Below are positions 1-59,549 of a DNA stretch of 64,000 nucleotides, piece by piece. This stretch comes from Nonlabens arenilitoris. GTDB lineage: Bacteria; Bacteroidota; Bacteroidia; Flavobacteriales; Flavobacteriaceae. The notes under the pieces are model-generated. The model was given only the letters and a program-made list of their open reading frames with translations. It ran no database searches and was not told the DNA's origin. Position numbers and translations under genes: made by a program. How positions within the stretch are numbered: position 1 is the first letter of the stretch; each line of letters starts with the position of its first letter. Where the stretch lies: NCBI RefSeq assembly GCF_002954765.1, contig NZ_MTPW01000001.1, positions 124,001 to 188,000 of the forward strand, written 5' to 3'.

Positions 1-860
1 GGCTCGTTTTAAGCATTACCACATCTAGTTTTCTATATGTGATTTTTAAATACTTTGAACTATTTAAAATCAACACATTACACGCTATTATCATTAATTA
101 CATAGTAGCTTGTATTACTGGTTTTGTATCTTATGGCAGGATGCCTAATGTAGAGCAAATTACAACGGCAAATTGGTTGTACTATGCAATATTTCTGGGC
201 GCGCTGTTTATATTTATTTTTAATATTATGGCGCTTACTAGTCAAAAAAATGGCCTTTCAGTCGCGGCTGTGGCTGGTAAAATGTCACTGGTAATTCCTG
301 TTATTGCAGGTATATGGCTCTATAATGAGTCTATGGGCTGGATGAAAATAGTCGGGATTTTACTAGCACTAGTCTCTGTTTACTTGACATCTGTAAAAAC
401 AAAGGAAGGCATACAACTAGATAAACGATTGCTTATTTTTCCGATTGTTTTATTCTTAGGTAGTGGTATAATAGATACTACGTTGAAATATGCCGAAAAG
501 ATGCACGTGCCTGATGGTGAAGAACCACTTTTTAGTGCGATGTGTTTTGCAATGGCTTTTCTTATAGGAATAGTCGTTTTAATCTATGAGGCTACTCAAA
601 AAAGGTTATTGACTTTGCGCAGTATAATGGGAGGAATTGCTTTAGGAATACCTAATTATTTTTCTATCTATTTTATTATTAAAACACTTAAAAACGGAAT
701 GGAAAGTAGCGTGGTTTACCCTATTAATCACGTAGGAACCGTTCTTTTAACCTGTCTATTAGGTATTATACTGTTTAAGGAACGATTAATTTCTAAAAAC
801 TACATAGGTATTGCAGTTGCCATTATGGCTATTGTGATGATCGCTTTCGCGAAAGCGTAA
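1..860 (+). CDS. EamA/DMT-family transporter (5' end cut by window edge)
   Basis: Integral membrane protein of the drug/metabolite transporter (EamA) superfamily; substrate unknown. The frame has no stop upstream and stays open to base 3 (upstream codons read LVLSITTSSFLYV), so the GTG at 39 is probably internal and the true start lies outside the window. About nine hydrophobic helices remain, with a KMSLVIPVIAGIW segment and a C-terminal half repeating the pattern (VVYPINHVGTVLLT, then ILFKERLISKNYIGIA), the internal duplication typical of EamA. The last codons (AFAKA-stop) are formed by a copy of the CGCTTTCGCGAAAGCG palindrome at 842-857, which ends two bases before the stop. A terminator follows directly. 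Confidence 0.88.
   Translation, partial: LVLSITTSSFLYVIFKYFELFKINTLHAIIINYIVACITGFVSYGRMPNVEQITTANWLYYAIFLGALFIFIFNIMALTSQKNGLSVAAVAGKMSLVIPVIAGIWLYNESMGWMKIVGILLALVSVYLTSVKTKEGIQLDKRLLIFPIVLFLGSGIIDTTLKYAEKMHVPDGEEPLFSAMCFAMAFLIGIVVLIYEATQKRLLTLRSIMGGIALGIPNYFSIYFIIKTLKNGMESSVVYPINHVGTVLLTCLLGIILFKERLISKNYIGIAVAIMAIVMIAFAKA
842..857. repeat. Iterated palindrome, copy 1 (perfect 16 bp)
   Basis: CGCTTTCGCGAAAGCG, perfectly self-complementary, forms the last sense codons (A-F-A-K-A) of the EamA transporter gene. Confidence 0.95.
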
Positions 861-892
861 AAAAAAAACTTCTCATTTCTGAGAAGCTTTTA
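861..892. terminator. Rho-independent terminator, likely bidirectional
   Basis: Stem CTTCTCA / TGAGAAG with loop TTTC, preceded by an A-run and followed by CTTTT. It separates the convergent EamA gene and the small lipoprotein gene. Confidence 0.8.
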
Positions 893-913
893 AAAGCAAA
901 AAAATGATATTGC

Positions 914-1474
914 TTATTGTCTTTGAAAATCAGCAAATCCATCTATCAGAATTTCTATGGACGCTCCACCAGTGGTTTGCGTTGATAATCCATTAACATC
1001 GATTGATAAATCTGTAGCATTTAAAGTACTTATAGTTAGTGTAGTTGTGTCATCAAAAGGTGTAACATTATTAGGTGAAGCGCTATTAAATCTTAATATA
1101 TCACCTGTTACAGTATAGGTACCTGCGTCGTTAAAGGTATTAGTCTGATTACCTTGAGAGACACCTTGATTGATTACTTCAAATTCTAGGTCACCTGTTA
1201 TGGCATAGGTTCCATCTGCATTAAAGGTCATTATAGCATTTGAACTAACATATTCTACAGATGCCGTAATAGATACTGGTGTACCAGAAACCGTAGTTGT
1301 AGTTGTAGTATTAGTTTCTACATCTGTATATAACCAGTTACCTACTAGTAATGTTGCATCAACATTACCACCACCTGTTCCACCAGTAGTAGGATTTAAT
1401 CCTGGATCTAGAGCTTCAGTTTCACAACTAGTTATAGCTAAAACAGTAATTAATATGATAAATAACTTTTTCAT
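914..1474 (-). CDS. Putative lipoprotein, lipocalin-like
   Basis: Exported 186-residue protein of unknown function. It starts MKKLFIILITVLAITSC, a signal peptide with lipobox ITSC, so Cys17 is the predicted lipidated residue. A Thr/Gly-rich linker follows, then a beta-rich region of about 130 residues beginning LLVGNWLYTDVET with later NADGTYAITGDLEF and TGDILRF strands. This G-x-W plus repeated short-strand pattern resembles the lipocalin-like families common in Bacteroidota; that assignment is by pattern only. It is convergent with the EamA gene and divergent from the YigZ gene. Confidence 0.75.
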   Translation of the reverse strand: MKKLFIILITVLAITSCETEALDPGLNPTTGGTGGGNVDATLLVGNWLYTDVETNTTTTTTVSGTPVSITASVEYVSSNAIMTFNADGTYAITGDLEFEVINQGVSQGNQTNTFNDAGTYTVTGDILRFNSASPNNVTPFDDTTTLTISTLNATDLSIDVNGLSTQTTGGASIEILIDGFADFQRQ

Positions 1475-1559
1475 TTTTTGGTTTTTGGGTTACATTGCAA
1501 ATGAAATAGATTATCACGATAAAACTTTCATTCACCAATTCTTTACCAAAACTTTAACA

Positions 1560-2165
1560 TTGACAGATTCTTACAAAACCATTATCAAACCAACAGAAGA
1601 AATTCTTTATAAGGAAAAGGGTAGTAAGTTTTATGGATATGCTTTTCCCTTAAAAAACGATCAAGAGGTTAATGAATTAATAGCACCATTGCGCAATCGA
1701 CATCCTAAGGCTGGACATCATTGTTATGCATGGAAACTGGGAGCTGATGAGCACAACTATAGGGCAAATGATGATGGAGAACCTAGTCATAGTGCAGGTG
1801 ACCCTATATTAGGACAGATCAATTCTTATGAGCTGAGCGATATATTAGTGGTGGTCTCAAGGATTTTTGGTGGTACAAAGTTAGGTGTAGGTGGATTGAT
1901 AAGTGCTTATAGGGAAACTGCAAAATTAACCTTGGATACTGCAGATATAAGATTAAGAACCATAACGGCTGCTATAGAAATTAGCTTTGAATATCCACAA
2001 ATGAGTCAAGTTATGCGATTTATTGACGAAGGTAATTTCTCTATGATTTCTCAAAATTTAACTGCTAGTTGTATCATAACGATTGCAGTACCTCAATCAC
2101 AACAAGAATCTATTACCGCATCAATTAACCAGATGTACCCGATTAAGGCCAAAGCACTAGACTAG
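1560..2165 (+). CDS. yigZ: YigZ/IMPACT-family protein
   Basis: Member of the YigZ (UPF0029/IMPACT N-terminal) family of two-domain proteins; the bacterial role is unsettled. Key features: GSKFYGYAFPL near residue 20, HHCYAWKLG, NDDGEPSHSAGDPIL and the family signature IFGGTKLGVGGLISAYRE. The frame is open back to 1455, but that overlaps the divergent lipoprotein start and adds about 35 unrelated residues. Homologues as I know them begin near the TDSYKTI segment, so I chose the TTG at 1560, giving 201 residues, the normal family length. Its stop overlaps by 4 bp the end of the convergent flavoprotein gene. Confidence 0.85.
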   Translation: MTDSYKTIIKPTEEILYKEKGSKFYGYAFPLKNDQEVNELIAPLRNRHPKAGHHCYAWKLGADEHNYRANDDGEPSHSAGDPILGQINSYELSDILVVVSRIFGGTKLGVGGLISAYRETAKLTLDTADIRLRTITAAIEISFEYPQMSQVMRFIDEGNFSMISQNLTASCIITIAVPQSQQESITASINQMYPIKAKALD

Positions 2166-2707: not shown

Positions 2708-2760
2708 TTTATTGAGTTAAGTAATATAATACACAAAGGTTACCATTGAAAACAACTTGA

Positions 2761-7271: not shown

Positions 7272-8315
7272 TTATAAATTTAAACTCTTAGTATCCCAAA
7301 TTGAGATATCGTTACATTTTAAGGTACCTTTCTTAATTTCTAATGGAGCTTCAATATTATTAGTATACAATCCTCCAGTCCCTAATCCTTGCGGCATCAT
7401 ATTGCCCAGCGTGTAGGTAAATTGCGCAATTGCGTTAAGACCTACATTAGATTCCAGCGCACTAGTCATCCACCAGCCGATATTATTATTTCCAGCAATA
7501 TTAATCCATTCTCTACAGCTTTGAAAACCACCTACCAATGCTGGTTTTAAAATGATATACTGTGGTTTAATCGTTTCTAGACAACGTTGTTTTTCTTCTA
7601 ACTCATATATCCCTATAAGCTCCTCATCTAGCGCTATATCCACAGGTGATTGCTCACAAAGAGATGCCATCTCATGCCATTGTCCTTGCTTTATAGGCTG
7701 TTCTATACTATGCACTTTAAATTTAGCAAGCGCCTCTAATTTTTCCATCGCATTTTGTGGTGTAAAAGCGCCATTTGCATCAACTCTTATTGTTATCTCG
7801 CTTTCGCGAAAGCGAGACCGTACAGCTTCTAGCAATTCTAATTCCTTATTAAAATCAATTGCACCTATCTTGAATTTAATACAGTTAAAACCGCTAGCCA
7901 ACTTTTCTTCAAGCTGTTGCATCATAAAATCTTGATCACCCATCCATACTAATCCATTGATATTGATCGCATCCATACCTTCAGTAAATAGCGACGGGAA
8001 AAGGGTAAATACATCTGACGATTGTAGAGACTTAAGCGCCATTTCATAACCAAAAAGAATAGACGGCCATTGTTTTAACGCTGTAAATAAAACTGCTGGT
8101 TTTAAATGAATATTATCGCATAACCATTGCAACTTATCTTCATAGTCTGGTCTATCATCAATGGATAGACCTTTAAATAAATTACATTCTCCTATACCCT
8201 TTTTATCACCATTAGAGAGGTATAAAAAATAGGTTTCTTTAACGTCTAGAACACCTCTCGAGGTACCAGCTGGACGCTTAAATTCTAAAGTATACTTTTT
8301 AAATTGAGCTTGCAT
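7272..8315 (-). CDS. menC: o-Succinylbenzoate synthase MenC
   Basis: 347-residue enolase-superfamily enzyme dehydrating SHCHC to o-succinylbenzoate in menaquinone synthesis. Catalytic layout is intact: KFKIG (base Lys), IRVDANGAF (metal Asp), SIEQPI (metal Glu), ALDEEL (metal Asp) and the second Lys in YIILKPALVGG. First gene of the operon menC - CPBP - menE. A 20-bp extended palindrome (7797-7816) is read here as R-F-R-E-S-E within the segment just before IRVDANGAF, a surface-helix position. Confidence 0.93.
   Translation of the reverse strand: MQAQFKKYTLEFKRPAGTSRGVLDVKETYFLYLSNGDKKGIGECNLFKGLSIDDRPDYEDKLQWLCDNIHLKPAVLFTALKQWPSILFGYEMALKSLQSSDVFTLFPSLFTEGMDAININGLVWMGDQDFMMQQLEEKLASGFNCIKFKIGAIDFNKELELLEAVRSRFRESEITIRVDANGAFTPQNAMEKLEALAKFKVHSIEQPIKQGQWHEMASLCEQSPVDIALDEELIGIYELEEKQRCLETIKPQYIILKPALVGGFQSCREWINIAGNNNIGWWMTSALESNVGLNAIAQFTYTLGNMMPQGLGTGGLYTNNIEAPLEIKKGTLKCNDISIWDTKSLNL
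7799..7814. repeat. Iterated palindrome, copy 2 (perfect, extends to 20 bp)
   Basis: CGCTTTCGCGAAAGCG inside menC, extended by CT...AG to a perfect 20-bp palindrome at 7797-7816. It is read in a frame not used by other copies (RFRESE). Confidence 0.95.
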
Positions 8316-11004: not shown

Positions 11005-11466
11005 TTATGCCTTCTTTTTAACAGTCCATTCAAATCTGAACTGGCTTACCTCTACTCCATCTTGATTCACACCACGTGATTCCATCCATACGGTTTGTCC
11101 TTCACCAGTGGCTACCGTTTTCTCTATCGCTTGTTGAATAGCTTTACCATCATGACAAGTGAAGGTGATAATACCGGTTGCTTTTTTAGTAAAAACAGCC
11201 TCATTACGAGCCACTAGCATTGAAACTCTAGCATCGCTTTTTTGTATAAATGACATCACTAACGCTCCTGTAGAAAGCTCGGCAGCCATCGCTTGTGTGG
11301 CAAAATACATACTCTTAAATGGATTCTGGTTGAACCATTTATGGCGCACTTTTACCGTACAAGATTCCTCACTTATAGTCTTACATCTGACACCTGCCCA
11401 CCATGCACTAGGTAGTTTTAAGAAGGTAAATGCATTTATTTTCTTTGGAGTGATCATTTTTAACAT
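11005..11466 (-). CDS. DUF4442 hot-dog-fold protein
   Basis: About 153 residues with the DUF4442 pattern: FLKLPSAWWAGVRCKTI, VRHKWFNQNPFKSMYFATQAMAAEL, then a C-terminal FRFEWTVKKK strand. The family has a PaaI/4HBT thioesterase-like fold; catalytic activity is unproven. Start: the frame opens with TTG at 11475, but that TTG is part of a TACATTTG -7 promoter element (11473-11480), so it cannot be translated. ATG 11466 or ATG 11457 (MITPKKINAF) are the plausible starts; the latter fits the family N-terminus equally well. With 11466 the mRNA would be nearly leaderless. Confidence 0.82.
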   Translation of the reverse strand: MLKMITPKKINAFTFLKLPSAWWAGVRCKTISEESCTVKVRHKWFNQNPFKSMYFATQAMAAELSTGALVMSFIQKSDARVSMLVARNEAVFTKKATGIITFTCHDGKAIQQAIEKTVATGEGQTVWMESRGVNQDGVEVSQFRFEWTVKKKA

Positions 11467-11472
11467 TTTGTA

Positions 11473-11480
11473 CAAATGTA
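11473..11480 (-). promoter_or_regulatory. -7 element TACATTTG for the DUF4442 gene
   Basis: Exact match to the Bacteroidota -7 consensus TAnnTTTG on the minus strand, 6 nt before ATG 11466. No TTG is seen 17-23 nt upstream; the region that would carry the -33 box instead holds a copy of the iterated palindrome (11503-11518). Confidence 0.6.
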
Positions 11481-11502
11481 ATCAAAAGGCGCGTTGTTGT
11501 TA

Positions 11503-11518
11503 CGCTTTCGCGAAAGCG
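11503..11518. repeat. Iterated palindrome, copy 3 (perfect, intergenic)
   Basis: CGCTTTCGCGAAAGCG between the divergent DUF4442 and DUF4870 genes, beginning 22 nt upstream of the TACATTTG element of the minus-strand gene. Confidence 0.95.
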
Positions 11519-11563
11519 AAATATAAAATATCAAACAATTTTAAAAATATATGGTACTTTGTA

Positions 11564-11595
11564 TTGCATAATACTATCTTTTAGATATATATTTG
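11564..11595 (+). promoter_or_regulatory. Promoter of the DUF4870-PadR-PspC operon
   Basis: TTG (11564-11566), 21-nt spacer, TATATTTG (11588-11595), matching the flavobacterial TTG-N17-23-TAnnTTTG consensus. The ATG is 20 nt downstream. Confidence 0.7.
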
Positions 11596-19432: not shown

Positions 19433-19981
19433 ATGACTAGAACCTACATCAATCCTATCACAAAAGAACGCGCTACCATTCTTAAAACTAGCGCACAAAC
19501 TAATGGATCATACACTTACATAGAAGTAGAATTGCAGCCTGGTGGCGGTAATCCTATCCATTATCATCAACATTTTACAGAACAGTTTGAACCTATTGAC
19601 GGTACCTTAGGCGTTCATTATTTAGGTAAAGAAATAAGCTTAAAACCTGGTCAAATATTTAAAGTACCCGTAATAGATAATCATCGTTTTTATAATCCAG
19701 GTGATCGGCCTATTATCTTTAGAGCAAAACTGGAACCTGGCCAGCCCGGATTTGAAAATTTCATGGCAGCACTTTTTGGATTGGTTAGTGATGGTAAAAC
19801 TTTTGGAAAAAACCAGATTCCGTTCAATCCATTTTATGCTATAATTTTACTTAAATGGGGCGATACTCAAGTAGATAGCTTATTCTTCAGGTTATTTAAA
19901 CCTGTTTTGATATTACTGTATACGCTTTCGCGAAAGCTGGGATACGAAAAGAAATTGCTACACAAATATGTCATAGGTTAA
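19433..19981 (+). CDS. Cupin-domain protein
   Basis: 182-residue protein with one cupin fold: cupin motif 1 is GGGNPIHYHQHFTEQFEPIDG (metal ligands His-x-His and Glu), motif 2 PVIDNHRFYNPGDRPI. The C-terminal about 70 residues are hydrophobic-aromatic (FFRLFKPVLILLYTLSRKLGYEKK), perhaps a membrane-associated helix. Function unknown. A palindrome copy at 19923-19937 is read in the LSRKL frame near the C-terminus. Divergent from trxB. Confidence 0.83.
   Translation: MTRTYINPITKERATILKTSAQTNGSYTYIEVELQPGGGNPIHYHQHFTEQFEPIDGTLGVHYLGKEISLKPGQIFKVPVIDNHRFYNPGDRPIIFRAKLEPGQPGFENFMAALFGLVSDGKTFGKNQIPFNPFYAIILLKWGDTQVDSLFFRLFKPVLILLYTLSRKLGYEKKLLHKYVIG
19923..19937. repeat. Iterated palindrome, copy 4 (14-bp core perfect)
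   Basis: CGCTTTCGCGAAAGC followed by T instead of G, so the 14-bp core GCTTTCGCGAAAGC is intact. Read as T-L-S-R-K-L inside the cupin gene. Confidence 0.93.
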
Positions 19982-27887: not shown

Positions 27888-28680
27888 ACCTCAACTCTCT
27901 AATATAGTCGACCGTATTTTTTAAGCGGCTACCATACCAAGAAAAATAAGTTCCGTCTACATGAAGTAATTGTGGACTTTTTAATCCTGCTTTCGCGAAA
28001 GCGTCTTCAAATTCCTTCTTATCTAAATCATTAAAAGCATAAGGCTCTGATGAGAGCATAATGACTTGAGGATTTAAATTAACAATGTTTTGAAGTGTCA
28101 ATTCTGGATAGCGACTTGCACCATCCATCATGTTTTTATAACCACCACGTTCCATGATATCGTGAATAAAGGTATCACTACCAACCGTCATATATGGATC
28201 TTTCCATATCAAATAGAGTGCATTTATAGCGCTATGCGACTCTTTTTCAAAATGATTGAAGTTGATTTTGATTCTATTCACTAACGATTTAGCTTTAAAA
28301 CTAGTTCCTGTCATTTTCCCTAAATCTGTAATCATTTCCATAGCATCATCTAGATTAGCTATATCTGACACGTATGTAGGTGCGATTTCTTGACAAGCTA
28401 GAACAATTTCTTGTGTGTTCTCTTCTTTATTACAAATGATAAGATCTGGTTTCACTTCCCAAATACGTGAAGCAATCACCTTTTTTGTACCACCTACCAC
28501 TTTTATCTTATCAATTAATCCAGCAGGATATTCACAAAATCTAGTGATACCAACTAGATGATCTTCTAGACCTAAATCTACCAAAAGCTCTGTTTGTGAA
28601 GGTACTAAAGATACAATACGTAAAGGTCGTTGTGGCAGTTCAACAATGCGATAACATTGGTCAGTGATTGATATAAACAT
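27880..28680 (-). CDS. Helical-backbone metal receptor (BtuF-like), no signal peptide
   Basis: 266-residue protein of the periplasmic-binding TroA/BtuF superfamily: PLRIVSLVPSQTELLVDLGLEDHLVGITRFCEYP at the start, VVGGTKKV, IWEVKPDLIICNKEENTQE, and YMTVGSDTFIHDIMERGGYKNM. These match cobalamin/iron-siderophore receptors. There is no signal peptide or lipobox, unlike true BtuF, so a cytoplasmic or undefined role is possible. A palindrome copy at 27989-28002 encodes AFAKA near the C-terminus. It overlaps by one base the small gene upstream. Confidence 0.85.
   Translation of the reverse strand: MFISITDQCYRIVELPQRPLRIVSLVPSQTELLVDLGLEDHLVGITRFCEYPAGLIDKIKVVGGTKKVIASRIWEVKPDLIICNKEENTQEIVLACQEIAPTYVSDIANLDDAMEMITDLGKMTGTSFKAKSLVNRIKINFNHFEKESHSAINALYLIWKDPYMTVGSDTFIHDIMERGGYKNMMDGASRYPELTLQNIVNLNPQVIMLSSEPYAFNDLDKKEFEDAFAKAGLKSPQLLHVDGTYFSWYGSRLKNTVDYIRELRSK
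27989..28002. repeat. Iterated palindrome, copy 5 (14-bp core)
   Basis: GCTTTCGCGAAAGC, followed by G on the right only. Read as D-A-F-A-K-A in the metal-receptor gene. Confidence 0.93.
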
Positions 28681-28931: not shown

Positions 28932-31766
28932 TTATTGATAGGTGATCATACCATCTCTATTATTAATATGAATTATAATTTCTTCAATACCATCGCTATC
29001 GCTCACTTTATAATTGCGACCATTCATATTAAAGCTCAATTTATAAAGTTGACCTATCGAATTTCTTTTTACTGTTTTGAATTCAAAATCGATCCCTAAT
29101 TTTTTCATTCTGTTCTCATAAGCTTTTAATTGAGAGTCTGGTGTATCGACATTAATATGTATTCGATCATAATAATCAATAGATAATTCTTCTGACTCCT
29201 TTCCTGGTATAGTATATAGAATCTTTACTGCATCCAATGAATGGTACTTAACCCTATTCATAATTTTATATTCACCATTGTATTTTGGCTTTGAGGCAAA
29301 TCTAAACTCTCTTATTTCACTATTGCGACGGTTGTTAATTTCTTGTCTCTTTTCATCTCTGCGTTGTAATAGTTCTTGTCTTCTAGATTCCATTTGCTCT
29401 CTGTTAATGGACCTTAAAGAATCTGTTTTTATTGCTCTTCCTTGCATGATTTCTTGTCTCCTTTGTTCGACTTCCATTCTTCTATTACTGCGCACAGAAT
29501 CCATTTCAACTCGTCTTTGTGTCATTAAATGACTTCTCTCTCTTACACGAGATATTTTTTTAAGATCTTTTCCATCTTTAGTAGTAATAAGTATGACACC
29601 TTCTTCACCCTTTAGGCCATATGAATCAGTTGCATCTTTACCTTTTAAAATATTCATAGAGGCAACATTGCTCATGTCCATTTCACCGTTAAAAATGGTC
29701 TGGTCAGACTCTTTACCGTTAACAATTACCAATGGTTTCACACCATGGGAATTATTCATAACGATGTAGCTACCAGAGCTTAAATTACTGTTAGGCATTT
29801 CAAACCGTGAGTAATCAATATCATCTAAGTCATTTAAATCTGGTAACTCCTGAAAATAATTACCTATAGAATCTGAATTGATATAGATTAGGGATTTTTG
29901 AATGTGTGATTCTATAGAGTCAAAATTGATATTCATAAGCTGTAAATCAATTTGACTCTGTAATGAGTCCAAATCGATGCTACTCAACTTTATAGTTTGC
30001 ATGATGCTATCCACATTAATTTGCGCCAGTTGATGATACTCATCAGGTGATAGGTTCATATACTTAACATCTCCTAATTGATAAGTAGTTTGAGGTGCGT
30101 CCTCGCAATTGTTGAGTTTCCAGTTTTTATGATCTCCTTTTATAGAACCGTTAATACATATATGAGGTATTGCGGTATCATTCTTATAGGCTTGTGATAT
30201 TCTGGTTCCGTCATTATCATCTAGTTCTATTTTAATAGATACCAGCTGTCCTTCTTTATATCTAAGCTTACTATATTTAAAATCAACATTATAAGATTCT
30301 TTTAAAAACTTTTTATGCTCTTCTAGAGATTCCTTTGTAGATGAAGGTGTGATTTTAATAAAAATCTTTACATCTTTAGCGTTTACTTCTCTCCATTGAA
30401 GGTTTTCATCTTGCTCTATATTTAAATCACCATAAGTCCAATCGTCACCCATTTCAACATGAACTCCATCTTTATTTACGTATAGAGTTTCACTAGAACT
30501 ATCATCATTTACCCATAGCTTTTCTTTACTAGCTTTAATAAGTAAGATCTTGAAAGGCTCAGTCCCTATAGTCATGTTCTTATCCCATTTTTTACCAGGA
30601 AACTTTGTAGATATACTTAGACGTTTTAATCTATTTCTTTCATCACGTTCTTGATCACTAAATTTTACTTGATAATTTGCGTGGTCATTGATTTGTGATG
30701 CATACATTTCTAAATCTTCATCAGTAGTCTGTGCTGTGATGTCATAGATAAGCTCCTCAAAATTTTGAACAATAGAATCTGGTTTAGAATTCTTTACCTC
30801 ATTGATCATATTTAGATCACTGTATTCTTTTAATGAATTTTGAACCTCTAGAGTGGGATCATTTTCTACTTCTAGATACTCTACTTCAGTAACAACGTTA
30901 AAGCTGTATAGAAAAACGACAATTACTGGTAATATTAATGCATACTTATATGCGTTCCAGCGTGCACTGGCTTCTTTTTGTAACATCATAATACGTTTTT
31001 TAATGAAAGGTGTAAAAAAATTATTGGCTAGTGATGGTTGTAAGTGAAATGCAGCACTACTTAACAAGGTACGTTCATAGCTTATACCTTTTTTGGTTTG
31101 AGTTTTCGCTTCGGCATCTGCAATGAATTCTAGGTTCTCTCCTATTTGCTTTTTCAACCACCACGCTAGCGGATTGATCCAAAAAATGGCTCTATATAAA
31201 TGGCTTACTAGTACGTCAATACTATGCCATTGTCTAGCATGAACTCTCTCGTGATCTAATATGATATCTAATGCAGCACTGGGCTCTTCTTTTTCACTAT
31301 AGCATATATAATGGAAGAAGCTGAATGGTGTTAGCTTTCGCGAAAGCGTGACCATTACAAATTTCCCACTCTTAACTGACTTACCTGAACGTATTAAACG
31401 ATACAGCGAGTTGAGCTCTATAATCATTTTACCAATAAAAAAGGCGACAACAGCCAAGTATAGAAAACCAAATAATCGCCAGTAATCAAAAGGTTCTTGT
31501 GCCTCAACCAAAGGCTGTTCTAGCATTATTGCCATGGGCGTTGCTACCTGCCGTGGTACATATGAATATTGTTGAATGGGTTGTTCTATATAAACAGTTT
31601 GAGTGATCTCTATTAAAGGGAATAAAACAGATGCTACAATACCAGCAAATAGAAACCAACGATTTGCTTGAAAAAAAGTCAACCGACGCAATAAAAAATG
31701 ATATGTAAGAACAAATATGCTCAGTGCACCAGCACATTTTAGTAAATATTCTATAATAGCTTCCAT
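28932..31766 (-). CDS. M56/BlaR1-type membrane metalloprotease with repeated periplasmic modules
   Basis: 944-residue sensor-protease. Transmembrane helices in the first 300 residues; zinc motif LDHERVHARQWH (HExxH, residues about 172-176). The C-terminal part is extracytoplasmic and holds three copies of one module of about 75 residues (about 340-412, 464-537, 867-941), recognisable as strand - T/S-rich turn - charged helix - G-x-L/I strand, e.g. FIKITPSSTKESLEEHKKFL and NSIGQLYKLSFNMNG. Between them are a TonB-receptor plug-like segment (PLVIVNGKE...GVILITTKDG, about 677-729) and an Arg/Glu-rich stretch (about 735-830). BlaR1 family members cleave the repressor BlaI on signal; the ligand here is unknown. 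Gene lies 1 bp after the BlaI gene. Palindrome copy at 31334-31347 reads LSRKL. Confidence 0.9.
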   Translation of the reverse strand: MEAIIEYLLKCAGALSIFVLTYHFLLRRLTFFQANRWFLFAGIVASVLFPLIEITQTVYIEQPIQQYSYVPRQVATPMAIMLEQPLVEAQEPFDYWRLFGFLYLAVVAFFIGKMIIELNSLYRLIRSGKSVKSGKFVMVTLSRKLTPFSFFHYICYSEKEEPSAALDIILDHERVHARQWHSIDVLVSHLYRAIFWINPLAWWLKKQIGENLEFIADAEAKTQTKKGISYERTLLSSAAFHLQPSLANNFFTPFIKKRIMMLQKEASARWNAYKYALILPVIVVFLYSFNVVTEVEYLEVENDPTLEVQNSLKEYSDLNMINEVKNSKPDSIVQNFEELIYDITAQTTDEDLEMYASQINDHANYQVKFSDQERDERNRLKRLSISTKFPGKKWDKNMTIGTEPFKILLIKASKEKLWVNDDSSSETLYVNKDGVHVEMGDDWTYGDLNIEQDENLQWREVNAKDVKIFIKITPSSTKESLEEHKKFLKESYNVDFKYSKLRYKEGQLVSIKIELDDNDGTRISQAYKNDTAIPHICINGSIKGDHKNWKLNNCEDAPQTTYQLGDVKYMNLSPDEYHQLAQINVDSIMQTIKLSSIDLDSLQSQIDLQLMNINFDSIESHIQKSLIYINSDSIGNYFQELPDLNDLDDIDYSRFEMPNSNLSSGSYIVMNNSHGVKPLVIVNGKESDQTIFNGEMDMSNVASMNILKGKDATDSYGLKGEEGVILITTKDGKDLKKISRVRERSHLMTQRRVEMDSVRSNRRMEVEQRRQEIMQGRAIKTDSLRSINREQMESRRQELLQRRDEKRQEINNRRNSEIREFRFASKPKYNGEYKIMNRVKYHSLDAVKILYTIPGKESEELSIDYYDRIHINVDTPDSQLKAYENRMKKLGIDFEFKTVKRNSIGQLYKLSFNMNGRNYKVSDSDGIEEIIIHINNRDGMITYQ
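31334..31347. repeat. Iterated palindrome, copy 6 (14-bp core)
   Basis: GCTTTCGCGAAAGC, read as T-L-S-R-K-L in the M56 protease just before the TPFSFF segment that precedes the protease motif. Confidence 0.93.
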
Positions 31767-33907: not shown

Positions 33908-35790
33908 CTATTCTTTACTCTCTGTTACATTTACTCGATTATTTCTTTCATCTATATCAATTAAAACAAACGTAACAGACTCTAATACATTGAAAACAAA
34001 TGTCTCATCGTCAATTCTAAAAACCAGATCAGTCAATTGACCGCGATCATTATGTTTTAATTCTAGTAACTCTGTGTCAAACTGATATTGCTTAATTTTA
34101 ATAAGAATATCTTCAACCTCATTCTTATTAAAAGAGGTTGGTATCTTAAAACTATGAGTAGGCTTAAACTCTTTATTATTAATATCTTCACTATCAACTC
34201 CAGCACCTACTACCTTACCTTTCTCGTCAATAAGTTCTCCTTGTAAATTTTTAATAATGAGTAAATTTTCTGTAAATTCATAAATAGCCTCAACACTATT
34301 AACAATGACTTTACCTTTTTGTGGTGCGTCTATGAGCTCATCTTCTATGGTTAAAATTTTATTCCCGAAAGCATCATATATAAATGTGCGTCCCATATAG
34401 ACTTTAAAGCTACACTGCTCTGCATTAAAAATTAAAAACCTTGTTCAATTATTCTATTCTCAATAGCTATGTAACCTTGTTGATTTGCATTAATCATTAG
34501 TTGTTTGCGAGAAGTTGTTTGATCTAAATCTTCTCTATATCTTTCTCTCTCATCAATTAGCTCCTGTTCTGCTTTCAACAGCGCCGCTCTTCTCTTTTCT
34601 TCTTCAATGAGACGTTCTTTCTCTAATTGTGCATTAAGTTCATCTTGTAAAGCTTGTCGCTCTAGGGCGAGTCTATCTAATTCGATCTGTCTTTCTAACC
34701 GTTTTAATTCTAGAGCCTCTTTTTCTTTCTTTACTCGTTCATTTTCCGCCTTAACTTGCTCTAATCGTTCGGCTTCCAGTCTTTTACGTACTCTTATTAC
34801 TTCTCTAGCACGTTCTTTTTCTTCTTCCTTTAAGCGCAGTGCTTCTTTTTTATCTTGTTCTTCTTGCAGACGTCGTTGCTCTAGTCGTTGTTGAGCAGCA
34901 AGCCGTTCCTTTTCTAATGTTTCTAACTGAAGTCGTTCTTCTTGCGCAAGAGTTTCTAGTCTAGCCGTTTCAATAGCTATTTGCTTCTTTTCCTCTTCTA
35001 GTTTTGCAATTCGCGCTGCTTCTTCTTCTTGTCTTCTAGCTAGTTGCCGTTCACTAACTTCTTTTAATTGCTGTTCTCTTTTTAATGCCCTTTCTGCTAT
35101 TAATTGCTCGTTTTGAATACGTCTTTCCTCTTGTTGCGCTTCTAGTTTTGCTTTTCTAGCTAATACATCAATACGTCGTTGTTCTTGCTGTTGTTTCACT
35201 CTCAATCTGGCTGCCTCTATATCTTTCTCCGTTTTTGCCTTACGAGCTGCTATTACAGATTGAGCAGCCTGACGAGCATCAACCTCTTTTTGCTCTTCTT
35301 GTTTTTGATTTTCTTTTACTTCAACCTCAGTAGAGTCTGCTGGTTTTTGATTTGAAAATGATTCATATTGTGCAGCACTTATAGGTGTGACTGCCTTTAA
35401 AGCCACTTCACACGGCGCAAACTCAATGATGTCATTTAAAGCAGGATTGAGAGTTAAGCAAATAGTATCGATACCATTCTCATTTTGAATATGTAAAGGA
35501 AATACGGTGCCATTTTTATCTGTCAAAGTAAGATCTAGTAAAGTAATAACTCCACCATGGCGCTTATATCCATTTAATTTTGCCTTAATGCTATGATTTA
35601 AAAACAGCTCTTTAAAAAGCTCAAAGATTTCTGTTCTAGTCGAACTTTTTTCAATGCTAAAGGTTGCAATTTCTGTATTGGAGTAGATAGTATGTGCAAT
35701 GGTTGCTGGTGTTTCCGCTTTCGCGAAAGCGTAGAACCCAACAAATAGCACGATCACTAACAACTTCCATTTCCCTACAAATGAAGTCAT
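33908..35790 (-). pseudogene. Exported protein, paralog B, split by a one-base frameshift
   Basis: Two frames that together match paralog A end to end. The first (35790-34432, 452 residues) has signal peptide MTSFVGKWKLLVIVLFVGFY, the N-terminal M56-type module (about 42-118), a conserved Cys near residue 127 and a very long charged alpha-helix (about 160-420, rich in E, R, K, L, Q) and stops in EQGF-stop. The second (from about 34440 to 33908) continues LIFNAEQCSFKVY-MGRTFIYDAFGNKI, aligned residue for residue to paralog A. Adding one T to the T5 run (minus strand, bases 34438-34434) restores a 627-residue protein. Either a true pseudogene, a sequencing error, or, less likely, programmed slippage at UUU-UAA. 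Palindrome copy at 35716-35731 lies in the signal peptide (FAKA). Confidence 0.75.
35716..35731. repeat. Iterated palindrome, copy 7 (perfect 16 bp)
   Basis: CGCTTTCGCGAAAGCG at the signal-peptide end of paralog B, read A-F-A-K-A. Confidence 0.95.
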
Positions 35791-40087: not shown

Positions 40088-41080
40088 TTAATTAATATGA
40101 TAAATACCACCTATATTTAAATTGATGAAATTACCTGCACTTAATTGAGAACTCAAATCCCAATTATTAAAATGATAAGTAGCACCTACATCCACTTTGT
40201 AGCTATCTTGTGTTTCACTTAAAACCTCTAGCACTTGATTTAAAGTTTGCAGAAAAATGCCATCGTCTCCACTTAACTCATAATCTATCCAGCTACGATT
40301 ATAAGCAACACCTGAACTAAAAGTCCAGTCCTTATAATTTTTACTTGCTATTATCTGAAATAATATAGCATGTGCGTCAACTAAAGACCCATCGATAACT
40401 GCTAGCGGCGGAAAATTATCATCAGATCGTAATTCATATGGATTGAATGATAGATTTAAGTCAAATAAAGAATAACTGGTTAAAAACGCCAACTCAACAG
40501 GACGATCACCCTTGAAAAAATATTGTGATAAATTATGTTTTACTCCAATTCCATAAATTGCATAATCAGATTTATCTATCTTTATATTAGGTGAATATCT
40601 TAATAGAAGCTCTGTTTCCTGCCACAACCCTACTCCTACTTGTAAAAATGGGTAGGCTAGAAATCCTGTATCGATACCTTCAAAAGCCTGAAATTCGTAC
40701 TCTTCACCATCAATTGTAAAATCAAAAAAGGTACGTTGTTCACCTCCTAACGTAGTAGGTATGGTAGTAGACTCATCACCTCGTATCGTTAAATTTAATA
40801 AGTCATCGTTATTGATATCAAAATTCTTTTTGCTTGATGGAAAGACTAAAGCATTAGCATGTAATGCAATGGTGACCTTATACTTATCTAAAGAATTTGC
40901 ACTATGATACCAACCAGCACTAGATTGCATCACAGAAGCTTCAGCCGCTGGCTGAACATACCGGTCAGAAATTAGAAGCAAATCGGTAAGTACGTTTCCC
41001 AAATCCTCATTTTGAGATTTAGAAAATTCCGCTTTCGCGAAAGCGAAAACACAACAAAGAATAGTAACTTTAAAATTCAT
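40088..41080 (-). CDS. DUF6588-like outer-membrane protein
   Basis: 330-residue exported protein, probably an outer-membrane barrel: signal peptide MNFKVTILCCVFAFA, then QNEDLGNVLTDLLLISDRYVQPAAEA, a pattern matching DUF6588 proteins of Bacteroidota, alternating strands (GFLAYPFLQVGVGLWQETELLLRY), and a C-terminal FINLNIGGIYHIN. The palindrome at 41030-41045 supplies AFAKA at the signal peptide/mature junction, giving an abnormal AEFSKSQ stretch before the conserved NEDLG. Confidence 0.8.
   Translation of the reverse strand: MNFKVTILCCVFAFAKAEFSKSQNEDLGNVLTDLLLISDRYVQPAAEASVMQSSAGWYHSANSLDKYKVTIALHANALVFPSSKKNFDINNDDLLNLTIRGDESTTIPTTLGGEQRTFFDFTIDGEEYEFQAFEGIDTGFLAYPFLQVGVGLWQETELLLRYSPNIKIDKSDYAIYGIGVKHNLSQYFFKGDRPVELAFLTSYSLFDLNLSFNPYELRSDDNFPPLAVIDGSLVDAHAILFQIIASKNYKDWTFSSGVAYNRSWIDYELSGDDGIFLQTLNQVLEVLSETQDSYKVDVGATYHFNNWDLSSQLSAGNFINLNIGGIYHIN
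41030..41045. repeat. Iterated palindrome, copy 8 (perfect 16 bp)
   Basis: CGCTTTCGCGAAAGCG in the signal-peptide region of the DUF6588-like gene, read A-F-A-K-A. Confidence 0.95.
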
Positions 41081-42794: not shown

Positions 42795-42869
42795 CGGCTC
42801 GTAAAAATTAACCTCTGACGATATTCGTGAATGTTAGTCTTTACTTAAACAAATTAATTCCCATTCAAC

Positions 42870-46270: not shown

Positions 46271-46286
46271 CGCTTTCGCGAAAGCG
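46271..46286. repeat. Iterated palindrome, copy 9 (perfect, intergenic)
   Basis: CGCTTTCGCGAAAGCG in the 32-bp gap between the stop codons of the convergent DUF2306 and Omp85 genes; no T-run follows, so it is not an obvious terminator. Confidence 0.95.
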
Positions 46287-49762: not shown

Positions 49763-50542
49763 TTAATTTGGATACCATTCTAGTTGTGTTACTTGAATAT
49801 CACTATTTCCAATATTTACTAATTCTTTAAACTTAACCACATCAGATTTACCATCAGTTCCTCTATAGTGATAAGGATAAACTTCAACTGGGGCAAAGTC
49901 TAGAACAGCATCTGCTGCGCTTTCCACAGTCATAGTATATGGTAGATTCATACACACAAAGGCTTTATTAATCCCTTCAAGCGCTCTCATTTCAGGAATA
50001 TCTTCTGTATCTCCAGAAATATAGACTTTAAATGCATTTTTTTCAATTACATATCCGTTACCTCTTCCTTTTTCATGAAACTTAAGACGTTCTTCTGTGA
50101 GGTTATACATAGGTATTGCGGTCACTTTAAAACCATCAAAACTTGTGGATTGATCATTATGTATCACCTCAGCATCTCTTTGATCATCTTTTATTTTATC
50201 ATTAACAGCCTCAGGCACGATGAGTAGAGATTCTTTATTTCGCACGCCGTTTAAGGTTTCTATGTTTAGGTGATCTCCATGTATATCTGTAATTAAGATA
50301 ACATCTTCTTCAGGCATATTTTGAAAGGCTTCAATACCACCAACAGGATCTATATAAAAAACTTTATCATCCCATTTCATCACAAATGTCGCATGAGAAA
50401 TCGGCATTATTTCTATGTCAGGTTGATAACTATCAGTAGAGGTTACCTCATTTTGCACTGTTGATTCTACTTCTTTGGTGGTTTCTTTTTTACAGCTTAC
50501 CAGTATAGCAATAAGACTGAGCGATAGTATAATTTTTTTCAT
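49763..50542 (-). CDS. MBL-fold metal-dependent hydrolase, lipoprotein
   Basis: 259-residue lipoprotein; start ATG 50542 gives MKKIILSLSLIAILVSC (lipobox LVSC). The upstream frame extension would translate the degraded palindrome copy, so is rejected. Belongs to the UlaG-like/MBL superfamily: IMPISHATFVMKWDDKVFYIDPVGG, ITDIHGDHLNIETL (HxDHxx), GNGYVIEKNAFKVYISGDTEDIPEM, YPYHYRG. Substrate unknown. Confidence 0.87.
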   Translation of the reverse strand: MKKIILSLSLIAILVSCKKETTKEVESTVQNEVTSTDSYQPDIEIMPISHATFVMKWDDKVFYIDPVGGIEAFQNMPEEDVILITDIHGDHLNIETLNGVRNKESLLIVPEAVNDKIKDDQRDAEVIHNDQSTSFDGFKVTAIPMYNLTEERLKFHEKGRGNGYVIEKNAFKVYISGDTEDIPEMRALEGINKAFVCMNLPYTMTVESAADAVLDFAPVEVYPYHYRGTDGKSDVVKFKELVNIGNSDIQVTQLEWYPN

Positions 50543-50566
50543 AGTCGTAATTATTTTGAAATCAAA

Positions 50567-50579
50567 TTTCGCGAAAGCG
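50567..50579. repeat. Iterated palindrome, copy 10 (half-degraded)
   Basis: TTTCGCGAAAGCG with the left arm replaced (AAA instead of GC), so the central TTTCGCGAAA and right arm remain. It lies 25 bp upstream of the MBL lipoprotein ATG. Confidence 0.8.
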
Positions 50580-50828
50580 ATGACCAATACCTATGAATTA
50601 AGAAGGATTTATTACTATATGTGGTCTATTTATATAGATGTAGCAAAATTTTAACTTTAAATTAAAATTACAATTCAATTTTTAGAAAATTGATTATGAG
50701 TGAATTAATTATTTATCAAAACATTTAATTAAAACTCTTAACCTTAGAGTAACGAGCAAGTCCATATAGATTACAAACGCTTAAAGATTCATTGATTTTG
50801 ATATTTAAACATTGCTGGATGGGACGTT

Positions 50829-55551: not shown

Positions 55552-55553
55552 CT

Positions 55554-56795: not shown

Positions 56796-56903
56796 AGTGT
56801 GAAGATAGTATTTTTAATAAGCCCTTTAAAACCTATGTACAAAGGTGATAAAACTTGACATAATCTTAACACAATTATTCGGTAACTTGGACTGCTTAAA
56901 AAA

Positions 56904-58073
56904 ATGAATATGAGCTCAAAAAAAAGACTCGTTAATACACTTTGTGTACACGCAGGAAATTTAGAAGATGAAAAGTATGGTGGTGCTACCTCACCTATTT
57001 ATACATCAACTGCTTATGATTATCGTGGCGAAGGCACAAATCTATATCCACGATACTTTAATACACCTAATCAGGTTGCCCTAGCCCAAAAAATTGCTGC
57101 ACTAGAAAACTGTGAAGCTGGACTTATCTTCGGCAGTGGTATGGCAGCCATTAGTGCTATTTTTATGGCGTTCTTAAAAACGGGCGATCACGTTATTTTA
57201 CAACGTGCCATCTATGGTGGCACCTCTCATTTTGTAGATGCCGAGTTTACGAATCTGGGAATTGAATATTCGTTTGTTGAACAAGTCAATAGTGAATCAC
57301 TTAAAGCCCATCTTAAAGAAAATACTAAGATGATTTATATTGAAACTCCTAGCAATCCACTATTAGAAGTAGTAGATATGACTGTGGTTTCCGCTTTCGC
57401 GAAAGCGAACTCTCTAATAAGCGTTATCGATAATACATTTGCTTCACCTATCAACCAGAATCCTGCAGATTTTGGCATCGATATCATTATTCATAGTGCG
57501 ACAAAATATCTAGGTGGTCATAGCGATATTTGTGCTGGTACCGTGAGTAGTTCTCAAAAACACATGGATCAAATATGGAAAACCGCCAAAAATTATGGAG
57601 GTAGCCTAAGTGATCAAACCGTATGGTTGTTAGAACGCAGTATAAAAACACTAGGTCTAAGAGTTAAGAGACAAACTCGCAACGCAAAAAAACTAGCTCG
57701 CTTTCTAGAGAAACATCCATCTATTAAAAGAGTTAATTATCCTGGTTTAAAATCGCATCCAGATCACAAAATTGCCAAAGCACAAATGCATGGATATGGT
57801 GGTATGATGTCATTTGAATTTAAAGAATCTATTAACCATAGTCGTTTTTTAGAAGAATTACAGGTTATTAAGGTAGCGTTGAGTCTAGCTGGTGTAGAAA
57901 GTACCATTCTTGCTCCTACAGAGACATCACATTCATTATTAACACCACAACAACGCAAGGATCAAGGAATTACAGATCAGTTATTACGCTTCTCTGTAGG
58001 TATTGAAGAAGTAAGTAGCCTTATAGAGGATATAGAACGCGCCATGGAGAAAAGCCGTAAAATTGCAAAATGA
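56904..58073 (+). CDS. Cys/Met metabolism PLP-dependent enzyme (methionine gamma-lyase/cystathionine gamma-synthase type)
   Basis: 389-residue trans-sulfuration-family enzyme. PLP Lys in IIHSATKYLGGHSDICAG; SPIYTSTAYDYRGEGTNLYPRYFNTPNQVALAQKIAALENCEAGLIFGSGMAAIS is the typical N-terminal half; WLLERSIKTLGLRV follows. It could be methionine gamma-lyase, cystathionine gamma-lyase or synthase; not resolvable by eye. A palindrome copy at 57393-57408 encodes SAFAKANS in a helix position. Its end overlaps bshB1 by 4 bp, linking it to thiol metabolism. Confidence 0.88.
   Translation: MNMSSKKRLVNTLCVHAGNLEDEKYGGATSPIYTSTAYDYRGEGTNLYPRYFNTPNQVALAQKIAALENCEAGLIFGSGMAAISAIFMAFLKTGDHVILQRAIYGGTSHFVDAEFTNLGIEYSFVEQVNSESLKAHLKENTKMIYIETPSNPLLEVVDMTVVSAFAKANSLISVIDNTFASPINQNPADFGIDIIIHSATKYLGGHSDICAGTVSSSQKHMDQIWKTAKNYGGSLSDQTVWLLERSIKTLGLRVKRQTRNAKKLARFLEKHPSIKRVNYPGLKSHPDHKIAKAQMHGYGGMMSFEFKESINHSRFLEELQVIKVALSLAGVESTILAPTETSHSLLTPQQRKDQGITDQLLRFSVGIEEVSSLIEDIERAMEKSRKIAK
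57393..57408. repeat. Iterated palindrome, copy 11 (perfect 16 bp)
   Basis: CGCTTTCGCGAAAGCG in the PLP-enzyme gene, read A-F-A-K-A. Confidence 0.95.
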
Positions 58074-58798: not shown

Positions 58799-58813
58799 TT
58801 TTTATAAATTGTT

Positions 58814-58841
58814 TTGAATATTCAGAAATGTATTAAATTTG
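58814..58841 (+). promoter_or_regulatory. Promoter of tRNA-His
   Basis: TTG (58814-58816), 17-nt spacer, TAAATTTG (58834-58841), about 65 nt before the tRNA. Confidence 0.7.
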
Positions 58842-58905
58842 CATCCGCTTAACGGCGCAGTGGTTGAATTCTTGAGATCCACTTTAATAAAACTCACATT
58901 GATAT

Positions 58906-58980
58906 GGTGGTTGTAGCTCAGTTGGTTAGAGCGCTGGTTTGTGGTGCCGGAAGTCGCGGGTTCGAATCCCGTCTTCCACC
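58906..58980 (+). tRNA. tRNA-His (anticodon GTG)
   Basis: Cloverleaf with D-arm GCTC/GAGC, anticodon stem CTGGT/GCCGG around TTGTGGT (anticodon GTG), T-arm GCGGG-TTCGAAT-CCCGT. G at 58906 is the extra G(-1) of tRNA-His opposite C73 (58980). CCA is not encoded. The acceptor stem has two adjacent T-T oppositions (58911/58975, 58912/58974). Confidence 0.93.
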
Positions 58981-58983
58981 CTT

Positions 58984-59015
58984 AAAAGGTCTTAGTTTTA
59001 CTAAGACCTTTTTTT
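58984..59015. terminator. Bidirectional terminator between tRNA-His and apt
   Basis: Perfect stem AAAAGGTCTTAG / CTAAGACCTTTT, loop TTTTA, T-run to the right, A-run to the left. Confidence 0.9.
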
Positions 59016-59027
59016 ATGCCTTAATTT

Positions 59028-59549
59028 TTAATAGTGAAGTACTGATGCGATCTTATAATCTTTAATTTTTTCGCGCCCATTAATAAAGTCTAGTTCTATA
59101 ACAAAGTTAAAACCTTCTACTTTCCCACCAGCTTTTTGAATGATTTGAGCCGCGGCTATTGCTGTTCCTCCTGTTGCTAGCACATCATCATGTATTAAGA
59201 CACAATCACCAGGTGAAATTGCATTTTCCTGTAGCTCTAGTGTATCTGTGCCATATTCTAGCTCATACTCTTGTGAAATAATGGCTCCAGGCAATTTACC
59301 AGGTTTACGCAACATCACAAATTTTGCGTTGAGAGCATCTGCTAGTAGCATTCCAAAAAGAAAACCTCTTGATTCAATACCTACAACCACATCAATAGTT
59401 TGACCTCTAAAGTCTCTAACAAGTAATTCTGTGGTGATTGATCTCGCTTTCGCGGAAGCGAGTAATGGAGAAATATCCTTAAAAATAATTCCTTCTTTAG
59501 GAAAATCTGGGATGTCGTGTATGTGGGATTCTATAAATTCATTATTCAT
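59028..59549 (-). CDS. apt: Adenine phosphoribosyltransferase
   Basis: 173-residue purine-salvage enzyme: HDIPDFPKEGIIFKDISPLL at the start, VVGIESRGFLFGMLLADAL, LRKPGKLPG, and the PRPP loop CVLIHDDVLATGGTAIAA. Length normal. A palindrome copy with one mismatch (59445-59460) encodes ASAKAR where Apt proteins usually have an unrelated, equally long stretch. Confidence 0.97.
   Translation of the reverse strand: MNNEFIESHIHDIPDFPKEGIIFKDISPLLASAKARSITTELLVRDFRGQTIDVVVGIESRGFLFGMLLADALNAKFVMLRKPGKLPGAIISQEYELEYGTDTLELQENAISPGDCVLIHDDVLATGGTAIAAAQIIQKAGGKVEGFNFVIELDFINGREKIKDYKIASVLHY
59445..59460. repeat. Iterated palindrome, copy 12 (one mismatch)
   Basis: CGCTTTCGCGGAAGCG, one A-to-G change from the perfect form; outer CT...AG pairs as in copy 2. 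Read A-S-A-K-A in apt. Confidence 0.9.

What the first reader, a model, noticed from the sequence alone, without database searches (positions are those of the whole stretch)
842..59460. Iterated palindrome CGCTTTCGCGAAAGCG, 12 copies in 64 kb
Seen directly: 7 perfect 16-bp copies (842, 7799, 11503, 35716, 41030, 46271, 57393), 3 with only the 14-bp core plus at most one outer base (19923, 27989, 31334), and two decayed copies (50567, 59445). A given 14-mer is expected about 0.0002 times in 64 kb. Spacing is fairly even (2-8 kb, mean about 5.3 kb). Most are inside genes, so these are not terminators or ordinary REP elements. It recalls the cyanobacterial HIP1 octamer or Rickettsia palindromic elements, but I know no named family for it. 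Possible roles: chromosome organisation, a protein-binding or methylation mark, or an uptake-type signal.
Basis: partly seen in the sequence, partly recalled or inferred. Interest (0 to 1): 0.82.

Follow-up and report, generated by a model that had tools for sequence, protein, structure and literature searches.

The report
Genome-wide palindromic landmark in marine flavobacteria
A sea-bacterium genome carries hundreds of copies of one exact 16-letter mirror-image DNA word, spaced out along the chromosome and mostly kept intact as species diverge, which looks like a chromosome-wide landing site for a still unknown protein.

Summary
GCTTTCGCGAAAGC occurs 550 times in this 3.32-Mb Nonlabens genome (reversed control 0), 288-857 times in 22 of 22 other Nonlabens genomes, and 857 and 408 times in a Dokdonia-like and a related genome. 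Other genomes in the family and phylum samples have 0-19. Each side of the 16-bp core has an arm of about 18 bp poor in G on the outgoing strand, in all three genera, weakest in G226. With the core masked, it is intact in 334 of 464 diverged species pairs, against 2.3% of control 14-mers. Close neighbours are avoided. Cross-genus comparison suggests in-place substitution and mostly different places (8 sites). A methylase core, half-sites, flank pairing, pilus motors, MatP, SlmA and an extra ParB common to motif-rich genomes were tested without support. Best reading: an array of double-stranded binding sites for an unidentified dimeric chromosome-maintenance protein, kept by selection on density. 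The protein was not found. No description in the papers searched.

The parts
842..857 (.). perfect 16-bp core; arms about 824-841 and 858-875; last codons (AFAKA-stop) of the EamA-type transporter ORF 39-860
7799..7814 (.). perfect core; reads RFRES in ORF 7272-8315(-)
11503..11518 (.). perfect core; in short ORF 11159-11584(+), AFAKA frame (gene call uncertain)
19923..19938 (.). 14-bp core perfect, one outer base changed; LSRK frame near the end of ORF 19433-19981(+)
27988..28003 (.). 14-bp core perfect, one outer base changed; AFAKA in ORF 27880-28680(-)
31333..31348 (.). 14-bp core perfect, one outer base changed; LSRK frame in ORF 28932-31766(-)
35716..35731 (.). perfect core; AFAKA at the end of a signal-peptide-like N-terminus of ORF 34432-35790(-)
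41030..41045 (.). perfect core; AFAKA at the end of a signal-peptide-like N-terminus of ORF 40088-41080(-)
46271..46286 (.). perfect core; intergenic, between ORFs 45856-46257(+) and 46290-47546(-)
50564..50579 (.). damaged copy, three mismatches, one half intact; near the N-terminus of ORF 49763-50587(-)
57392..57407 (.). perfect core; AFAKA inside ORF 56904-58073(+)
59445..59460 (.). copy with one inner mismatch (A to G); in ORF 59028-59549(-)

Best explanation
The element is a double-stranded DNA address about 52 bp long: a 16-bp palindrome CGCTTTCGCGAAAGCG that a homodimeric protein reads with both halves at once, plus two arms of about 18 bp, poor in G on the outgoing strand, that each half contacts or deforms. 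One such site every 4-9 kb makes a chromosome-wide array. The protein most likely serves chromosome maintenance (nucleoid organisation or segregation, less likely repair). Selection keeps the density and spreads the sites out, while the exact places are free to change over genus-level time. Shown: genome-wide abundance, conservation within the genus, arms, avoidance of close neighbours, lineage restriction. Supported by few cases: in-place origin and change of place between genera. Inferred: that a protein binds it, that it is a dimer, and that the role is chromosome maintenance.
For: 550 copies against 0 reversed; 22 of 22 congeners; exact copies far outnumber near ones (69 exact, 12 one-off, 2 two-off, 18 three-off in 387 kb; first-order Markov 0, 0, 0.6, 9.9); core intact in 334 of 464 pairs against 2.3% of control windows with the core masked; arms seen in Nonlabens, Dokdonia and, more weakly, G226 at 46% GC; mirrored arm positions do not clearly co-vary, so no stem; half-sites outside exact copies lie almost all in near-copies (11 of 13); few short spacings in three genomes; found between genes in all four orientations and at 1-6 copies in each of 17 sampled 20-kb stretches from 0.4 to 3.2 Mb; a 35-kb gap in the array overlaps a polysaccharide-utilisation locus.
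Against: No binding protein was identified. No MatP, no extra ParB common to the motif-rich genomes and no SlmA-grade protein, so no known analogue supports the role. Known organising sites number tens per chromosome, not hundreds (recalled). Conservation and spacing would look much the same under uptake-driven molecular drive. In G004 (full range) and G242 only the short-spacing deficit, not the overall spacing variance, differs from random. Only 509 of 1010 site-genome combinations with any alignment span the site, so lost sites in diverged stretches are under-counted. G depletion does not stop sharply at 18 bp in Nonlabens and Dokdonia. Under first-order Markov TCGCGA and CGCG outside the motif are 1.4 and 1.2 times expected.
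Confidence: 0.45

Rival explanations
1. DNA-uptake signal: the site marks kin DNA for natural transformation and accumulates by molecular drive.
For: Lineage-restricted, dispersed, conserved at orthologous places, mostly in ORFs, missing over a stretch that looks acquired, with biased flanks. [quoted passage not shown]
Against: No type II secretion/type IV pilus ATPase above cut-off in 6 of 6 motif-rich genomes, only weak sub-threshold matches. The site is a perfect palindrome, whereas PMC1939737 states that uptake sequences are not palindromes. Density is 1 per 4-9 kb, not about 1 per kb (recalled).
Confidence: 0.2
2. HIP1-like by-product of methylation-directed mismatch repair: a methylase core plus biased repair creates and preserves the longer palindrome.
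For: HIP1 is also an iterated palindrome, and Elhai's model yields saturating density (PMC4390886, abstract and section 18 part 1). In G226 most listed one-off 16-mers differ at the outermost base. TCGCGA and CGCG outside the motif are slightly above a first-order expectation (32 against 23.3, 291 against 240.4).
Against: Against a maximal-order expectation they are not raised (32 against 31.3, 291 against 329.8). A 14-16 bp site with long arms is too long for a methylase site (established knowledge).
Confidence: 0.12
3. Recombination or repair signal of Chi type, acting from either side because it is palindromic.
For: Density is close to E. coli Chi (recalled), sites avoid close neighbours, and the 5' arm of each strand is poor in C.
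Against: Chi is read as a short single-stranded word (recalled), but half-sites outside exact copies number only 9 and 4 in 387 kb, and 11 of these 13 are one- or two-off copies of the whole site. Both halves are kept together.
Confidence: 0.1
4. Transcription feature: terminator, operator of a large regulon, or RNA hairpin.
For: The core can form a 6-bp hairpin, although the one site folded is not unusual against shuffles (z -1.49), and intergenic DNA is enriched.
Against: 57 of 91 placed sites lie within genes. Intergenic sites occur in all four gene orientations: 9 divergent, 5 convergent, 14 and 6 co-directional of 34. Mirrored flank positions do not clearly co-vary (largest z 2.25 of 19 tested). 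Places were not shared in 8 of 8 cross-genus comparisons, with one exception found elsewhere.
Confidence: 0.06
5. Mobile palindromic element or decaying insertion family.
For: Many copies, and some ride on islands.
Against: In 6 of 8 cross-genus protein alignments the site replaces existing residues without a gap. Of 130 non-intact orthologous places none lacks 10 or more of the 14 columns. The arms are a bias of composition, dinucleotide ratios 0.80-1.30, not a decayed fixed sequence. Exact copies dominate.
Confidence: 0.03

Closest known systems
HIP1 (GCGATCGC) of cyanobacteria
   Same: Palindrome repeated genome-wide, lineage-specific, function open
   Different: 14-16 bp instead of 8; 4-9 kb spacing instead of about 1 kb; no shorter core raised above a maximal-order expectation; composition-biased arms
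Uptake signal sequences (USS/DUS) of Pasteurellaceae and Neisseriaceae
   Same: Dispersed, lineage-specific, many in ORFs, even spacing reported
   Different: Those are not palindromic; no pilus motor above cut-off here; lower density
Sites of chromosome-organising proteins: matS/MatP, SBS/SlmA, NBS/Noc, parS/ParB
   Same: Perfect or near-perfect palindromes read by dimers, dispersed on the chromosome (recalled)
   Different: Hundreds of copies; MatP absent, SlmA cut-off not reached, no extra ParB common to motif-rich genomes; exact parS core present separately in 3 of 3 Nonlabens
Chi
   Same: Similar density (recalled)
   Different: Both halves kept together; half-sites alone are rare

Membership tests
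Highly iterated palindromes (HIP1 type) | short palindrome far above expectation genome-wide | tested here: met
   550 against 0 reversed
Highly iterated palindromes (HIP1 type) | shorter methyltransferase core with a signal of its own | tested here: not met
   outside the motif TCGCGA 32 (expected 31.3 maximal-order, 23.3 first-order), CGCG 291 (329.8, 240.4); no excess beyond 1.4 times under either model
Highly iterated palindromes (HIP1 type) | one-off variants concentrated at outer bases | tested here: inconclusive
   so in the G226 list for the 16-mer; in the G000 sample 11 of 12 one-off 14-mers differ at inner positions
Highly iterated palindromes (HIP1 type) | cognate DNA methyltransferase and methylation at sites | not tested
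   no long-read signal data; methyltransferases were not surveyed
Uptake signal sequence | non-palindromic word about once per kb | tested here: not met
   palindrome, mean 6.4 kb apart over the first 100 listed sites
Uptake signal sequence | type IV pilus motor ATPases | tested here: not met
   0 of 6 motif-rich genomes above the PF00437 cut-off (weak sub-threshold matches in all 13 genomes searched; 1 motif-poor genome and 13 of 14 controls above it)
Uptake signal sequence | preferential uptake of site-bearing DNA | not testable with these tools
   needs an experiment
parS / Noc-binding site | extra ParB-family protein in motif-rich genomes, or motif equal to parS | tested here: not met
   one ParB in 6 of 7 motif-rich genomes; the second hit in G015 lies in a 616-aa frame also seen in motif-poor G137 and G180; ParB of G226 and G242 aligns with motif-poor ones, the five Nonlabens ParB were not extracted; exact parS core 1-2 copies in 3 of 3 Nonlabens, 0 in the other 5 genomes
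matS/MatP | MatP present | tested here: not met
   0 of 6 genomes (5 motif-rich), E. coli control positive
SBS/SlmA | SlmA-grade protein | tested here: not met
   0 of 6 over cut-off; the 11 weak TetR-like hits were fetched; one group in all three genera precedes a tolC-like gene and has a different palindrome upstream in 3 of its 4 loci
Chi | short asymmetric word acting alone | tested here: not met
   13 half-sites outside exact copies, 11 of them in near-copies
Rickettsia palindromic / REP-type element | arrives as an insertion | tested here: not met
   ungapped replacement in 6 of 8 cross-genus alignments; 0 of 130 non-intact orthologous places lack 10 or more columns
Intrinsic terminator | hairpin placed at gene 3' ends | tested here: not met
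   57 of 91 placed sites inside genes, 9 of 34 intergenic ones between divergent genes

The most novel reading that the evidence does not exclude
A so far undescribed chromosome-wide loading-site system of Bacteroidota: a dimer binds the palindrome and assembles symmetrically outward over the arms. The arms show a weak three-base phasing of A (positions 7, 10, 13), also at sites classed as intergenic, reminiscent of proteins that bind DNA in triplets. Loaders every few kb would organise or patrol the chromosome, unlike parS, matS, HIP1, USS or Chi.
Probability: 0.3. Interest if true: 0.92.

Novelty: new variant of a known kind. Interest (0 to 1): 0.8.

Why it matters
Genome-wide iterated words such as HIP1 have remained puzzling because their readers are uncertain. 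This one is long, nearly all-or-none, lineage-restricted and present at hundreds of copies with a fixed core. That makes a direct biochemical search for its reader easy and gives a clean contrast between relatives (Nonlabens, Dokdonia and G226 have it; Leeuwenhoekiella-like genomes have only a few copies). The word also tags DNA shared between these genera and others: 11.2 kb of a motif-rich island is 99.98% identical in this genome and in a genome of another genus.

Tried and rejected
ParB respecification: ParB of G226 and G242 aligns with those of motif-poor genomes. My script failed to extract the five Nonlabens ParB proteins, so those were not compared. MatP: absent. A TetR group shared by G000, G002, G226 and G242, with the motif just behind it, looked like an autoregulated reader. 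The motif turned out to encode the signal-peptide end (AFAKA) of the next, tolC-like gene (my reading of the sequence, no family search), and a different palindrome (GGAAACT...AGTTTCC) lies upstream of tetR in three of the four loci. Close pairs of copies (222-270 bp) were checked as possible promoters of a reader gene: they lie in or beside genes of a shared module of unknown proteins, in one other gene of G004, and inside an amidohydrolase-like gene of the Dokdonia MAG. Extended RNA stem: no clear covariation. Rfam found only two tRNAs and an L19 leader in the window. Replication bias: sampled stretches only, 1-6 copies each, no formal test. Sites of G226 and Dokdonia gave no DNA alignment to Nonlabens across the site, so protein alignments were used.
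Full report
CHECK OF THE OBSERVATION. All 12 sites are present, with three start coordinates off by one and the copy at 59445 only one base away from perfect. Shuffles with the same dinucleotides give 0.06 matches. The whole genome (3.32 Mb, 3 contigs) holds 550 exact 14-mers, and the same pattern read backwards none.

ORGANISM AND RANGE. DnaA of the window is 100% identical to that of 'Flavobacteria bacterium BBFL7' and falls in one fully supported set with an 'uncultured Nonlabens' record, so I take the genus to be Nonlabens. All 22 other genomes of the genus searched carry 288-857 copies and the 16 genomes of other genera in that call none. In 349 genomes of the family, own genome included, 72 have at least one copy. 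Apart from the own genome and two other Nonlabens, only G226 (408) and G242 (857) exceed 19. G242 groups with a Dokdonia MAG (support 96), which itself has 4 copies in 21 kb. G226, 46% GC in the stretches read, falls in a set of five with Dokdonia and Leeuwenhoekiella (support 98); inside it the latter two join at 83. On this quick single-gene tree the motif-rich rows need three changes, at least two of them forced by well-supported branches, so one origin is not shown. In 247 genomes of the phylum, 16 have a copy and none except G000 more than 4. Two genomes of the Leeuwenhoekiella-like genus g159 have 9 and 6 exact 14-mers, spread over several contigs, and 31 and 22 16-mers within two mismatches, against 3 and 2 in the control. 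Remnants after a loss would look like this; repeated transfer is not excluded.

ISLANDS. In the three largest sets outside the motif-rich genera (G112 16, G322 19, G087 17 copies) the listed places cluster on one to three contigs (the G087 list was cut). A recurring 933-bp pair lies inside a 405-aa gene next to a 1,250-aa gene; I read these as the outer-membrane channel and RND pump of a Cus/Czc-like metal-efflux operon (my reading of the sequences, not a family search). An 11.2-kb piece of G087 contig 6 is 99.98% identical to G000 632-644 kb, a recent transfer. The direction of transfer is inferred. Singletons elsewhere were mostly not examined.

ANATOMY. In 387 kb of G000 there are 69 exact copies, 12 one-off, 2 two-off and 18 three-off, where a first-order Markov sequence gives 0, 0, 0.6 and 9.9. 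Over 92 Nonlabens, 21 further Nonlabens, 18 G226 and 15 Dokdonia sites, the arms at +5 to +18 have 6.2, 4.8, 16.1 and 7.9% G against 17.5, 16.3, 22.9 and 19.2% background, and A is high at +3/+4; a slighter G deficit goes on at +19 to +40 in G000 (14.6%) and Dokdonia (14.2%), so the outer edge is not sharp. The effect is in the positional composition: dinucleotides run at 0.80-1.30 of what that predicts. Bases at mirrored arm positions do not clearly co-vary (largest z 2.25 at position 15 of 19 tested), which speaks for two separate protein contacts and against a stem. A weak three-base phasing of A is seen at 55 sites classed as intergenic (difference 0.12, bootstrap 0.064-0.176) and at 59 sites in the AFAKA frame, where codons could cause it; it is not significant in the 32 genic sites of the other frames (P 0.11). 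Intergenic calls rest on my simple ORF finder.

PLACES. 42 of 68 sites are in genes and 26 between genes, with about 10% non-coding sequence. In genes the AFAKA frame dominates (29 of 42; RFRES 8, LSRK 5), and 9 of 42 lie within 90 nt of the ORF start, several in signal-peptide-like stretches. Intergenic sites occur in all four neighbour orientations. Among the first 100 listed sites of G000 the spacing CV is 0.73 (random 0.99, P 0.0002), and 3 of 99 spacings are under 1.5 kb (random 20.5). G004 has 5 spacings below a quarter of the mean (random 20.4) and G242 3 (random 9.8), although their overall CV does not differ from random over the full range (P 0.24, 0.41); a part of the G004 list chosen afterwards (14-260 kb) has CV 0.66. 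These lists are the first places that the tool prints, not whole genomes, and for G242 only perfect 16-mers. A gap at 383-418 kb overlaps sulfatase, rhamnosidase, SusD and TonB-receptor genes, a polysaccharide-utilisation locus as I read it; only its second half was read.

CONSERVATION AND ORIGIN. With the core masked before alignment, 464 Nonlabens pairs with flank identity below 0.85 (18 genomes, about 20 kb around dnaA, 96 sites) have the core intact in 334 (72.0%), against 2.3% of control 14-mers in the same alignments. Of the other 130, 48 have 1-2 mismatches, 67 three or more, 15 lack 1-9 columns and none lacks ten or more. Pairs share ancestry and are not independent, and only 509 of 1010 combinations with any alignment span the site, so the figure is for alignable DNA. 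Between genera, 27 of 33 sites of G226 and Dokdonia lie in long open frames; 8 had a Nonlabens protein hit across the site, 0 of 8 share the motif in the hits shown (three at most per site), and 6 of 8 are ungapped there. Some hits may be paralogues, and only the fetched Nonlabens stretches were searched. One exception is the signal peptide of a tolC-like gene, which carries the motif in 4 of 4 loci from three genera. So sites are stable within a genus and, on this small sample, mostly change place between genera.

WHAT IT IS NOT. The inner hexamer and CGCG outside the motif are not raised over a maximal-order Markov expectation, and 1.4 and 1.2 times over a first-order one. Of 13 half-sites outside exact copies 11 are one- or two-off copies of the whole site. 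No T2SSE/pilus ATPase passes the cut-off in 6 of 6 motif-rich genomes, though all 13 genomes searched have weak matches; one motif-poor genome and 13 of 14 control genomes pass. ParB is single in 6 of 7 motif-rich genomes; the second one, in G015, has counterparts in motif-poor genomes. Exact parS core is present separately in 3 of 3 Nonlabens searched and in 0 of the other 5 genomes. No MatP in 6 genomes, no SlmA-grade protein in the same 6. Many other DNA-binding families were not searched.

MECHANISM. The sequence evidence fits a site read as a whole by a dimer, with arms, selected for density. Which chromosomal process it serves is inferred. Architecture or segregation is favoured because of the wide spread, avoidance of close neighbours, indifference to gene orientation and lack of a pilus-type uptake motor.

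LITERATURE. Searches for the 14-mer and its 10-bp core, for Nonlabens, Dokdonia or Flavobacteria with palindrome terms, for HIP1, uptake signals and nucleoid sites found no description. Ten papers hold the 10-bp core, seen only as a search listing, and none of their titles concerns this. The library holds only openly licensed papers. Read: PMC4390886 (abstract, outline, section 18 part 1, one passage) and PMC1939737 (passages). Statements marked recalled rest on memory.

The site spacing across genomes is now 4-9 kb per copy, first-order expectations and sub-threshold hits are told, and island and empty-site statements rest.

Noticed in passing
L009-L012 (933-bp pair), L016, L020, L021 (single copies); G112 contig 3; G322 contig 5; G087 contig 6 against G000 632-644 kb: Motif-bearing islands with a metal-efflux-like operon in several genera; 11.2 kb of one is 99.98% identical between G087 and G000. 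The word could serve as a tracer of transfer.
   Followed up: partly
G000 contig 1, 383115-418454 (L140 covers the second half): 35-kb stretch without exact copies that overlaps a sulfatase/rhamnosidase/SusD polysaccharide-utilisation locus.
   Followed up: partly
G015 locus around dnaA, aligned with window 7800: A 33-bp GC-rich insertion appears to sit in the middle of an otherwise intact core.
   Followed up: no
L331, L332, L333: Two copies 222-223 bp apart kept in a conserved module of unknown proteins in G322, G112 and G004.
   Followed up: partly
L361, L362, L367 upstream of tetR: Conserved palindrome GGAAACT...AGTTTCC before a tetR-tolC-like operon, probably its operator.
   Followed up: no
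window 42809-42836: L19-Flavobacteria ribosomal protein leader (Rfam RF03130).
   Followed up: no
G000 contig 1, 1338580; G002 contig 1, 1525833 and 1527726: Exact parS cores lie over 1 Mb from dnaA, so the origin may not be next to dnaA.
   Followed up: no
L352 (G002 contig 1, 2000001-2020000): A 20-kb stretch of only 22.5% GC that still carries three motif copies.
   Followed up: no
Leeuwenhoekiella-like G180 and G364: Scattered exact and near copies, possibly remnants of a lost array.
   Followed up: partly
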